Assembly: GCA_014800845.1 (NCBI GenBank)
Contig: JAAVFJ010000031.1
Span: 1-39,178 of the forward strand
DNA: 39,178 nucleotides
Direction: 5' to 3'
Source: Bacteroidales bacterium
GTDB taxonomy: Bacteria; Bacteroidota; Bacteroidia; Bacteroidales; Muribaculaceae
In this document: one piece after another, positions 17,795 to 20,384 of the stretch
Numbering within the stretch: position 1 is the stretch's first letter
Layout: every line of letters starts with the position of its first letter
Position numbers and translations under genes: made by a program
The notes under the pieces: model-generated
The model's database searches: none
Told to the model about the DNA's origin: nothing
Seen by the model: only the letters and a program-made list of their open reading frames with translations

Positions 17795-18547
17795 TTAGTG
17801 CTTGATGTCGTAGCCCTGGGCGCGCAGATAGTCGAGAATGCGGTAGTCCATGGCGTGGCGATAGTAGTCAATGATGTGAGCACACCAGTCATTGTCGGTG
17901 GTGCCGCCGGCGCGGGTGCGGTTGTAGTGCTGCACGAGGGTGTCGTAATCGGCCATCTGCTGAGTGAGCTCCTCCTTGTCATTATTATAATGATTCTGGT
18001 GGAACACCACTGACAGTGGCTCTTTCGGCTTGAGGTCGGGCTGCTCGCGAGGCACGCCGATGGCCAGACCGCACACCACAAAAACACCTCTGGGGAGCTT
18101 CAGCATCTCAGCCACTTTTGCGGGGTCCACAGTGCGCAGATAGCCTATGCAGTTAGTGCCGAGGCCACAAGCCTGCGCAGCCACTACGGCACTCATCATA
18201 GCCAACGATGCATCGATTATGCCTATGATAGTTCCATCCATAGTGTCGGTGAAGGGGGGCATGTCCACACCTTTGCGCTCAGCCAGAAGCTGAATCTTAT
18301 TGTAGTCAGAGAGGAAGACCATGAAGTGATTACAGGTCTTAATCTGCTTCTGGCCCGTGATGGCATAGAGCTCCTCCTTGAGGGCCTGGTCAGTGATGTC
18401 AATCACAGAGAACTGCTGACCATTGTAGCTGGTGGGGGTGTTCTGCACGGCGCGGTAGATGAAGTCGAGGTCTTCAGCTGACACGGCTTCGCGCTCATAT
18501 CGGCGCACTGAGGTGCGCTCAAGCAATGCTGTCTTTACGTCTTTCAT
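17795..18547 (-). CDS. Nitroreductase family flavoprotein (NfsA-like)
   Basis: This 250-residue FMN-dependent oxidoreductase has the N-terminal RTSVRRYE motif that contacts FMN phosphate. It also has TPTSYNGQQFSVI (about residues 37-49), the dimer-core stretch ASLAMMSAVVAAQACGLGTNCIG, and the C-terminal extension typical of the NfsA/FRP group. Such enzymes reduce nitro compounds, quinones or flavins with NAD(P)H; the true substrate is unknown. A structured 300-nt RNA lies upstream on the same strand, so the gene may be read from readthrough of that RNA; no separate consensus promoter is visible. Confidence 0.88.
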   Translation of the reverse strand: MKDVKTALLERTSVRRYEREAVSAEDLDFIYRAVQNTPTSYNGQQFSVIDITDQALKEELYAITGQKQIKTCNHFMVFLSDYNKIQLLAERKGVDMPPFTDTMDGTIIGIIDASLAMMSAVVAAQACGLGTNCIGYLRTVDPAKVAEMLKLPRGVFVVCGLAIGVPREQPDLKPKEPLSVVFHQNHYNNDKEELTQQMADYDTLVQHYNRTRAGGTTDNDWCAHIIDYYRHAMDYRILDYLRAQGYDIKH

Positions 18548-18576
18548 ATTTTGGGTTTTTGTTTGTAGTCTGATAG

Positions 18577-18624
18577 CCGGGGGCTAAAATAGCTAAGTAG
18601 CTAAAATAGCTAAAAAAGCCCCGG
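18577..18624 (-). promoter_or_regulatory. Hairpin with TAGCTA repeats in the nitroreductase leader
   Basis: CCGGGGGCT (18577-18585) can pair with AGCCCCGG (18617-18624, one G bulged) around a loop made of repeated TAGCTAAAA words. It lies between the ncRNA terminator and the nitroreductase start, 30 bp from the ATG. It could act as an attenuator or mRNA-stabilising hairpin. Confidence 0.4.
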
Positions 18625-18628
18625 GGAG

Positions 18629-18665
18629 AAAAATCAGAGCCGGTAATCGCGAGGAAAACCGGCTC
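18629..18665 (-). terminator. Terminator of the candidate RNA
   Basis: GAGCCGGT (18637-18644) pairs with ACCGGCTC (18658-18665), 8 bp with a 13-nt loop. On the minus strand TGA and then five T's (18633-18629) follow. Confidence 0.6.
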
Positions 18666-18929
18666 CGTATAAATGCCACACCAAAGGATGCGATGAAACT
18701 CCGAATGACAGGATTTGAGTGCTCCTCCTCTCTGTAATCCGCCGTGCCTTAGTTAAGGCAACCTCCCGAGGGAGGCGCGGCCCGCCATTAAGTAAGTAAG
18801 CTTGTCTCGGTATTTCATAAAAATTTGATGAGTTTCCCAATCTACTTTGATGTGGTATGAGTTAATTCATTGGGAGTCTCCGGCTCGCTTGCCGGAGCGG
18901 AGAGGGCTTTTCAGTCGCTCTTTGTAATT
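18629..18929 (-). ncRNA. Candidate structured RNA of about 300 nt, own promoter and terminator
   Basis: A perfect promoter (18936-18967) sets a start near 18929 on the minus strand, and an intrinsic-terminator-like stem ends it near 18629. Between them helices are dense: CTCCGGC/GCCGGAG (18878-18884 with 18891-18897), CCCAAT/ATTGGG (18836-18841 with 18869-18874), CCTCCC/GGGAGG (18762-18767 with 18770-18775), GCCTTA/TAAGGC (18746-18751 with 18754-18759), and GGATT/AATCC further on. The third and fourth sit side by side inside a CCGC/GCGG closure, a likely three-way junction. No tRNA, RNase P core or tmRNA tag is visible. A 68-residue frame (18634-18840) crosses it but looks incidental. It could also be a long 5' leader of the nitroreductase gene. 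Confidence 0.6.
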
Positions 18930-18935
18930 ACAACG

Positions 18936-18967
18936 CAAAGGTAGGAATAAAAGTTGGCACTGCCAAA
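18936..18967 (-). promoter_or_regulatory. Consensus promoter of the candidate RNA
   Basis: On the minus strand TTTG (18967-18964), 20 bp, TACCTTTG (18943-18936): an exact match to the Bacteroidetes consensus. The nearest coding start downstream is about 380 bp away. Confidence 0.8.
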
Positions 18968-19091
18968 TTTTTTAACATTTCCTTTCCGTCTTTTATCGCC
19001 ATGAATCCTCAAAATTTCCTGATATCTCAGAGCCTCAGGAGGCTAAAGACACAGTTCATTTTCAGTGCCGCGACTCTCGAAGAACTGAAGC

Positions 19092-20384
19092 CTACTTCAG
19101 TCTCAAGTAAGAGTAGCCGAAGCGTTCGGCAGCCGCGCGGTCGAGCTCTTCGCGGAATTCGGGTGCAGCTACACTTATAAGGAGCTTGGCTCGCTCTGCC
19201 AGATTTTTGCCCAGCAGGTTAACTGCGCCATATTCCGTCACGATGTAATTAGTCTGGAAGCGGGTTGTCACTACGCCGGCACCCTCAGTGAGCACAGGTT
19301 TGATTTTATTGTGACCCTTGTTAGAGGTAGCCGTCATAGCCAGGAAGGAGATGCCCCCCTGCGAGCGTGAAGAACCGTAGACAAAATCATGCTGACCACC
19401 CACGCCGGAGAAGATACGTGTGCCGATGGAATCGGCGCAAATCTGACCGGTGAGGTCTATCTCCAGACAGGAATTGATGCTCATCACCTTCGGATTCTGA
19501 CCGATAATGAAGGGGTCGTTGGTCCAGGCTACATCGCGGAAGATTATGTCCTTATTGTAGTTCATATAGTCATAGAGGCGGCGGGAACCGAGAGCCAGCG
19601 AGGCTACACTCTTGCCGGGTTCTATGACCTTCTGAGAGTTGTCAATGATACCCTTCTCCAGCAGCGGGAGCACACCATCGGTCATGGCTTCTGTGTGGAG
19701 GCCGAGGTGCTTATGGTTAGAGAGGGCGGCAATCACAGCGTTGGGAATACCACCTACGCCAATCTGCAGAGTGGCGCCGTCGGGGATAAGCTCGGCTATG
19801 TAGCCACCAATCTTGATTTCCTTCTCGTTGGGGGCAGGGGTGGGCACCTCCACCAGAGGCTCGTCCACCTCCACAGCGGCGTTGATGCGCGACATGTGCA
19901 CCACCGGGTCACCGTAAGAGAAAGGCATGTTGGGATTGACCTGAGCTATCAGAATCTTTGCACACTCCACAGCGGAGCAGGCCACGTCGCCCGACACACC
20001 GAAGCTCATGTAGCCCTCCTCATTGGGCAGAGAGCAGTTGAGCAGCACCACGTCTATGGGCCAAATACCTTTGCGGAACAGTTCGGGCACATCGCTGAGG
20101 AAACGGGGAGTTGTGGAGCCATAGCCCTCGTTGATCCAGCGGCGCACGGAGTTGTTCACGAAGAATGAGTCAACATTAAACGCCTCCTTGTATTCCGGGC
20201 GGCAGAAGGGAGCCTCCCCTTTAGTCACGCCGAAACCGGTGTAGATAGTCACATCGCGCAGCTCATGCCCGCGGCGAGCGAGAGCTTCAGCGAGCACCTC
20301 GGGGGTGGAAGTTGAGCCCTGCAGATAGACGTAATCGCCGGACTTAATGAGGCTTACGGCCTCGTCTGCACTTACATATTTCAT
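19092..20384 (-). CDS. Acetyl-CoA hydrolase / CoA-transferase family protein
   Basis: This 430-residue enzyme belongs to the Cat1/butyryl-CoA:acetate and 4-hydroxybutyrate CoA-transferase group. The catalytic glutamate is E232 in HTEAMTDGV, and the CoA-binding loops GVGGIPNAV (209-217) and FSGVGGQHDFVYGS near residue 330 are present. It would move CoA from an acyl-CoA to acetate, or hydrolyse it; which one cannot be read from sequence. Its start overlaps the aminotransferase stop by ATGA (20381-20384), and it closes the operon with iorA and iorB. The natural substrate is therefore likely the acyl-CoA made by IorAB, such as phenylacetyl-CoA or indoleacetyl-CoA. Confidence 0.88.
   Translation of the reverse strand: MKYVSADEAVSLIKSGDYVYLQGSTSTPEVLAEALARRGHELRDVTIYTGFGVTKGEAPFCRPEYKEAFNVDSFFVNNSVRRWINEGYGSTTPRFLSDVPELFRKGIWPIDVVLLNCSLPNEEGYMSFGVSGDVACSAVECAKILIAQVNPNMPFSYGDPVVHMSRINAAVEVDEPLVEVPTPAPNEKEIKIGGYIAELIPDGATLQIGVGGIPNAVIAALSNHKHLGLHTEAMTDGVLPLLEKGIIDNSQKVIEPGKSVASLALGSRRLYDYMNYNKDIIFRDVAWTNDPFIIGQNPKVMSINSCLEIDLTGQICADSIGTRIFSGVGGQHDFVYGSSRSQGGISFLAMTATSNKGHNKIKPVLTEGAGVVTTRFQTNYIVTEYGAVNLLGKNLAERAKLLISVAAPEFREELDRAAAERFGYSYLRLK

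What the first reader, a model, noticed from the sequence alone, without database searches (positions are those of the whole stretch)
18629..18967. Unassigned structured RNA behind a perfect promoter
About 300 nt with an exact TTTG-N20-TACCTTTG promoter, at least five strong helices including an apparent three-way junction, and an intrinsic-terminator-like end, but no credible protein. I cannot match it to tmRNA, RNase P or a riboswitch class I know. It may be an independent RNA or a very long regulatory leader of a nitroreductase gene; the extra hairpin with TAGCTA repeats just before that gene would fit control by readthrough.
Basis: partly seen in the sequence, partly recalled or inferred. 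Interest (0 to 1): 0.8.

Follow-up and report, generated by a model that had tools for sequence, protein, structure and literature searches.

The report
6S RNA gene of a Bacteroidales bacterium
The unassigned RNA is the gut bacterium's 6S RNA, a known small RNA thought to hold RNA polymerase in reserve, so the find is mostly ordinary; the few new details are a closing stem missing from the public model and a lineage-specific hairpin at its start.

Summary
Window 18668-18857 (minus strand) matches Rfam RF01693, Bacteroidales-1 ("6S-Bacteroidales RNA suggested"), at 132.7 bits against a cut-off of 60. This genome has one copy; 56 of 59 sampled same-family genomes have it. The promoter is real: TT(T)G-N18..21-TAnnTTTG precedes 67 of 73 homologues, against 5 of 639 control windows. 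It is not a nitroreductase leader: that gene follows on the same strand in 3 of 56 same-family loci and is convergent in one same-genus genome. Added here: (1) a long closing stem that Rfam leaves unpaired, with changes on both sides at 12 of 13 pairs; (2) a 5' leader hairpin, commonest loops AAGAGA and GAGAGA, whose strict form occurs only in front of this RNA in 59 genomes; (3) weak homologues that also match 6S-Flavo (3 of 3) or sit behind zapA (5 of 7), as ssrS does in proteobacteria (PMC7641849, passages). RNA polymerase binding and pRNA synthesis were not testable; evidence for pRNAs in B. thetaiotaomicron is published (PMC7366714, passages).

The parts
18936..18967 (-). sigma-ABfr-type promoter: TTTG (18967-18964), 20-nt spacer, TACCTTTG (18943-18936)
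   Evidence: exact match; same architecture at 67 of 73 homologues versus 5 of 639 control windows
18858..18929 (-). 5' leader, start at about 18929 inferred from the promoter; outside the Rfam model
   Evidence: position inferred; leaders of variable length between promoter and model start in homologues
18878..18897 (-). leader hairpin CUCCGGC-AAGCGA-GCCGGAG, one of a group with RAGNGR hexaloops
   Evidence: 16 of 52 same-family leaders versus mean 0.41 in shuffles; stems pair beyond arm swaps; pairing probability 0.99
18668..18857 (-). 6S RNA core, RF01693 Bacteroidales-1
   Evidence: 132.7 bits, cut-off 60, E 6e-24, full model 1-179
18845..18855 (-). closing stem P1, 5' arm CCACAUCAAAG
   Evidence: 11 bp with 18676-18686; changes on both sides at 12 of 13 pairs in 73 homologues
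18676..18686 (-). closing stem P1, 3' arm CUUUGGUGUGG
   Evidence: as 5' arm
18830..18836 (-). helix P1b, 5' arm GAAACUC (pairs with 18695-18701)
   Evidence: per-pair table, mostly invariant, one pair changed from A-U to G-C in 2 of 73
18695..18701 (-). helix P1b, 3' arm GAGUUUC
18708..18719 (-). conserved CUCAAAUCCUGU, proposed 3' strand of the central bubble
   Evidence: CTCAAA[TC]C[CT]TG in 64 of 73 homologues; role inferred from other 6S RNAs
18741..18781 (-). apical three-way junction
   Evidence: MFE and pairing probabilities; same topology in the Rfam structure line
18629..18667 (-). intrinsic terminator: 10-bp hairpin 18635-18667 and U tract
   Evidence: terminator-like hairpin at 47 of 56 same-family and 15 of 17 other loci, 30 of 355 control windows
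17795..18547 (-). downstream nitroreductase-family gene, a neighbour and not part of the RNA
   Evidence: PF00881, E 3.7e-15; not conserved next to the RNA

Best explanation
It is the 6S RNA gene (ssrS equivalent, Rfam Bacteroidales-1) of a Bacteroidales bacterium. Shown by sequence: a sigma-ABfr-type promoter of its own, a rod closed by a covarying 5'-3' stem with an apical three-way junction, and an intrinsic terminator. Inferred from E. coli, B. subtilis and B. thetaiotaomicron: the rod mimics an open promoter, binds the housekeeping RNA polymerase holoenzyme when growth slows, and releases it when the enzyme copies a short pRNA from the bubble. Also inferred: the roughly 72-nt leader is trimmed or acts as a 5' module, and the mature RNA is close to the Rfam core.
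For: RF01693 hit at 132.7 bits. Single copy in the own genome and in 56 of 59 same-family genomes, 51 of 51 of those at least 90% complete and at most 5% contaminated. The own genome has no RF00013 and no RF01685 that would be another 6S. Promoter 67 of 73. Terminator 62 of 73. Closing stem covariation. RF01693 and 6S-Flavo match the same place and strand at 3 of 3 weak class-level loci. zapA lies upstream of the 10 fetched 6S-Flavo loci (of 11 genomes with a match) and of 5 of 7 weak order-level RF01693 loci; ssrS follows zapA in beta- and gamma-proteobacteria (passages of PMC7641849). B. thetaiotaomicron 6S RNA and evidence for pRNAs came from dRNA-seq (passages of PMC7366714).
Against: Rfam itself only says 'suggested'. 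No transcript, polymerase binding or pRNA was tested here. None of the 73 homologues above cut-off has a ZapA hit in the fetched flanks, and zapA of this genome is on another contig. The proposed 3' bubble strand holds no TAnnTTTG. The links to 6S-Flavo rest on RF01693 scores of 38-41 bits, below its cut-off of 60. Of the 10 6S-Flavo matches, 10 hold ACTCAAC but only 5 hold GGAGTT, and none fits my pattern for the CAAAUCCUGU core. I did not confirm that the 6S RNA of PMC7366714 is RF01693; it follows by elimination from the control genome Bacteroides ihuae, which rings for RF01693 but not for RF01685 or RF00013.
Confidence: 0.93

Rival explanations
1. A long regulatory leader (riboswitch or attenuator) of the nitroreductase gene, controlled by readthrough of the terminator and the TAGCTA hairpin.
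For: The gene starts about 80 nt after the terminator on the same strand, and a second stable hairpin lies between. A same-strand nitroreductase gene also follows in L014 (same genus) and L077.
Against: Same-strand nitroreductase neighbour in only 3 of 56 same-family loci, convergent in same-genus L092. Promoter and terminator flank most homologues irrespective of neighbour.
Confidence: 0.04
2. A Bacteroidales-specific RNA that shares only shape and short motifs with 6S RNA and has another target, as Ms1 does in actinobacteria (abstract of PMC9130861 in the listing).
For: Rfam calls the 6S assignment 'suggested'; RF00013 does not match in this genome.
Against: Near-universal single copy in the family, 6S-Flavo overlap, zapA synteny of weak homologues, published B. 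thetaiotaomicron 6S RNA with evidence for pRNAs.
Confidence: 0.03

Closest known systems
Bacteroidales-1 RNA (RF01693)
   Same: Full-length match 1-179, 132.7 bits; same apical junction and internal stem.
   Different: The Rfam consensus leaves both ends unpaired, whereas they form a covarying closing stem; this RNA also has a leader hairpin and a separate terminator beyond the model.
6S-Flavo RNA (RF01685)
   Same: Three class-level loci match both models at the same place and strand; ACTCAAC in 10 of 10 fetched 6S-Flavo matches and GGAGTT in 5 of 10.
   Different: No RF01685 match in this genome or the other 38 same-family genomes searched; shorter model; lies behind zapA, unlike here.
E. 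coli / B. subtilis 6S RNA (RF00013)
   Same: About 200-nt rod with closing stem, central single-stranded zone and apical arm, as described in passages of PMC8876501.
   Different: No RF00013 match in this genome; partner would be sigma-ABfr holoenzyme; apical three-way junction.

Membership tests
Bacteroidales-1 RNA (RF01693) | covariance-model score at or above the gathering score of 60 bits | tested here: met
   132.7 bits, full model
6S RNA (functional class) | rod closed by a stem of 5' and 3' ends | tested here: met
   P1 825 of 949 cells paired in 73 homologues; double changes at 12 of 13 pairs, 0 of 500 shuffles reach it
6S RNA (functional class) | central bubble resembling an open promoter | tested here: inconclusive
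   an A/U-rich 5' strand and a conserved CUCAAAUCCUGU 3' strand lie between P1b and the apical arm, but the MFE pairs part of them
6S RNA (functional class) | independent gene, one copy in nearly every genome of the lineage | tested here: met
   56 of 59 same-family genomes; promoter 67 of 73
6S RNA (functional class) | binds housekeeping RNA polymerase holoenzyme and templates pRNA | not testable with these tools
   evidence for pRNAs reported for B. thetaiotaomicron 6S RNA (passages of PMC7366714)
6S RNA RF00013 (Rfam family) | covariance-model match | tested here: not met
   no match in the own genome; control rings in 5 of 14 genomes
6S-Flavo RF01685 (Rfam family) | covariance-model match | tested here: not met
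   0 of 39 same-family genomes including the own; its control rang nowhere, but the model rings in 11 of 99 phylum genomes, 2 over cut-off
cis-regulatory leader of nitroreductase | conserved association with the gene | tested here: not met
   3 of 56 same strand

The most novel reading that the evidence does not exclude
In this family (inferred Muribaculaceae) the 6S RNA carries an extra 5' domain: a hairpin with an (A/G)AGAG(A/U)-type hexaloop and a varying but paired stem, whose strict form is found only in front of this RNA. Such a domain could recruit a processing nuclease or protein, or tune when 6S RNA matures, which would be a lineage-specific layer of control on the polymerase reserve.
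Probability: 0.4. Interest if true: 0.4.

Novelty: new member of a known kind. Interest (0 to 1): 0.22.

Why it matters
It removes a false novelty. It also gives small, checkable additions to a known RNA: a covarying closing stem that the Rfam model lacks, evidence that Bacteroidales-1 and 6S-Flavo belong together and share the zapA neighbourhood with proteobacterial ssrS, and a leader hairpin that recurs in front of 6S RNA in one gut-bacterial family.

Tried and rejected
Nitroreductase leader or riboswitch: rejected on synteny. Other Rfam classes: within 18500-19100 only RF01693 was above its cut-off; BMV3_UPD-PK1 (20.7 bits, cut-off 38) and CcsR1 (16.1, cut-off 65.3) are at chance level. A second 6S-like RNA in the own genome: none by RF00013 or RF01685, and no Rfam match at E up to 0.05 in the 3.2 kb around its zapA. 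General use of the leader hairpin: in 59 same-family genomes the strict pattern matched 13 times, in 13 genomes, and all 13 places lie just upstream of the RF01693 places. Looser forms were not searched genome-wide, and the window's own hairpin (loop AAGCGA) does not fit the strict pattern. sigma-70-type promoters in 18400-19200: 0 found.

Results against my reading. Promoter missing in 6 of 73 by my rule: L008, L023, L070, L092 (same genus as the window), L037, L046; the 639 control windows come from further upstream and are probably coding for the most part. Terminator missing in 9 of 56 same-family loci, L092 among them, and in 2 of 17 others. Most leaders lack the hairpin by the strict count: 16 of 52 have a stem of at least 3 and a RAGNGR loop (shuffles keep base composition only). 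Two of 15 leaders outside the family (L040, L043) also show a 3-pair A-U/G-U stem around AAGAGA, so specificity to the family is not absolute. In the loop-only test, 37 of 52 leaders contained AGAG/AGCG; taking the first occurrence gave 84 stem pairs, against a swap mean of 37.0 and a maximum of 55 in 1000. The window's own row scored 0 there because an earlier AAGAGC was taken. In one search the 5' arm of L041 was mis-anchored and was left in. RF01693 was found in 27 of 119 order genomes and 4 of 198 phylum genomes, both counts including the own genome and both under strict filters. Rows dropped before the counts on 73: L051 (cut by contig end) and L053-L059 (below the Rfam cut-off).

Literature limits. 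Wehner 2014 (PMC4615782) is not held, so what it says on Bacteroidetes 6S structure is unknown to me. Of PMC2864571, PMC7366714, PMC9723704, PMC5581868, PMC6808178, PMC5771137, PMC7641849 and PMC8876501 I saw only passages, of PMC9130861 only the start of the abstract. Supplements were not available. I make no claim that the closing stem, the zapA link or the leader hairpin are absent from print. The searches were those.

Full report
What is there. On the minus strand the window holds TTTG (18967-18964), a 20-nt spacer and TACCTTTG (18943-18936), then a strongly structured stretch that folds at -102.5 kcal/mol (z = -4.6, 0 of 100 shuffles as stable). It ends in a 10-bp hairpin followed by AUUUUU at 18629-18667 (-20.7 kcal/mol). 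No ORF of 80 aa or more lies in the gap between the neighbouring genes.

What it is. Rfam assigns 18668-18857 to RF01693, Bacteroidales-1, described as "6S-Bacteroidales RNA suggested": 132.7 bits, cut-off 60, whole model. It is the only copy in this genome. In a sample of the same family 56 of 59 genomes have it, 51 of 51 among those at least 90% complete and at most 5% contaminated; in the order 27 of 119, 20 of them above cut-off; in the phylum 4 of 198, one of them (the own genome) above cut-off. These three searches used stricter filters that lose weak matches, and all three counts include the own genome. The own genome matches neither RF00013 nor RF01685 6S-Flavo, so no second 6S RNA was found in it.

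Independent gene. I took 73 homologues above the Rfam cut-off (56 same-family, 17 other families; dropped: L051, cut by a contig end, and L053-L059, below cut-off). TT(T)G with 18-21 nt to TAnnTTTG lies within 140 nt upstream in 52 of 56 and 15 of 17, against 5 of 639 control windows from further upstream. This is the sigma-ABfr consensus quoted in passages of PMC7366714. A hairpin with a T run follows in 47 of 56 and 15 of 17, against 30 of 355 control windows. A nitroreductase gene follows on the same strand in 3 of 56 same-family loci (L001, L014, L077) and is convergent in same-genus L092; a weaker homologue lies on the other strand upstream in L091. The RNA is thus not a conserved leader of that gene, although some readthrough cannot be excluded.

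Structure beyond Rfam. The Rfam structure line leaves the ends unpaired. The minimum free energy fold closes them: CCACAUCAAAG (18855-18845) with CUUUGGUGUGG (18686-18676), pairing probability 0.97 or more. In a fixed register over 13 positions (the register of 68 of 73), 825 of 949 cells of 73 homologues form standard pairs. Twelve of 13 pairs show changes on both sides, in 94 cells, and 0 of 500 shuffles reach any of the four measures. Slides of 1-3 columns give 359-411 paired cells. The 17 homologues outside the family alone give 188 of 221 paired and 13 of 13 pairs with double changes. Duplex energies agree: native arms -17.3, swapped arms -12.7 kcal/mol on average, native lower in 3855 of 5256 comparisons. 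A closing stem, a central single-stranded zone and an apical arm are the described shape of 6S RNAs (passages of PMC8876501).

Link to other 6S RNAs. The three class-level loci with weak RF01693 scores (38-41 bits) each also match RF01685 6S-Flavo at the same place and strand, one of them above its cut-off. Of the seven order-level loci below the RF01693 cut-off, five (L055-L059) lie just downstream of a zapA gene, as do the 10 fetched 6S-Flavo loci of 11 genomes with a match; these 10 include the three just named. ZapA was confirmed by Pfam for three of the five order-level proteins. In beta- and gamma-proteobacteria ssrS directly follows zapA (passages of PMC7641849). None of the 73 above-cut-off homologues has a ZapA hit in its flank, even with a profile that includes this genome's own ZapA (two of the 73 have an upstream flank under 1 kb). 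In this genome zapA is on another contig with no Rfam match around it. So the gene probably moved in this lineage (inferred). B. thetaiotaomicron 6S RNA and evidence for two classes of pRNA came from dRNA-seq (passages of PMC7366714); that this is the same Rfam family is my inference. P. gingivalis strains have been annotated with one Bacteroidales-1 RNA each (passage of PMC5771137).

A leader hairpin. Between promoter and Rfam core the window has CUCCGGC-AAGCGA-GCCGGAG (18897-18878). Among 52 same-family leaders with a promoter, 16 have a stem of at least 3 pairs with a RAGNGR hexaloop, against a mean of 0.41 and a maximum of 3 in 200 shuffles; the commonest hexaloops with such stems are AAGAGA (9), GAGAGA (6) and AAGAGU (5). 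When sites are chosen by loop letters alone, the stems still pair: 84 stem pairs over 37 leaders, against a mean of 37.0 and a maximum of 55 in 1000 swaps. A strict promoter-plus-hairpin pattern occurs in 13 of 59 family genomes, once each, always in front of this RNA (one search compared). Two of 15 leaders outside the family show a weak 3-pair version. Its role is unknown; processing, protection or protein binding are guesses.

How it most likely works. By analogy (inferred), the rod is taken for an open promoter by the housekeeping holoenzyme, which it withholds from sigma-ABfr promoters in slow growth; pRNA synthesis from the bubble frees the enzyme. I see no TAnnTTTG in the proposed 3' bubble strand, whose conserved core is CUCAAAUCCUGU (64 of 73 in the form CTCAAA[TC]C[CT]TG), so the exact mimicry remains open.

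Verdict. A known RNA family, correctly seen and wrongly thought unassigned. Small additions: the closing stem, the joint placement with 6S-Flavo and zapA, and the lineage-specific leader hairpin.

Noticed in passing
window 18577-18625 (-): Second stable hairpin (GGGGCU...AGCCCC, -21.2 kcal/mol, z -3.3) with TAGCTA repeats between the 6S terminator and the nitroreductase gene; a pattern of two of its repeats occurs once in this genome.
   Followed up: partly
window 18954-18966: Inverted repeat TTGGC-AGT-GCCAA overlaps the -33 element of the 6S promoter and is terminator-like on both strands, though two such sites are within chance for this region; it may be the terminator of the upstream CoA-transferase gene or an operator.
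   Followed up: no
RF01693 model; L031, L032, L033: Rfam's Bacteroidales-1 and 6S-Flavo show no clan yet match the same three loci; the Bacteroidales-1 consensus lacks the closing stem.
   Followed up: yes
L055-L059: Weak 6S homologues behind zapA in other Bacteroidales; three of the five (L055, L058, L059) have TTCTTT between zapA and the RNA, boxA-like by eye.
   Followed up: partly
L119, L148, L172: Metagenome bins titled Lachnoclostridium, Lachnospiraceae and Clostridium carry the Bacteroidales 6S pattern; the titles are probably wrong.
   Followed up: no
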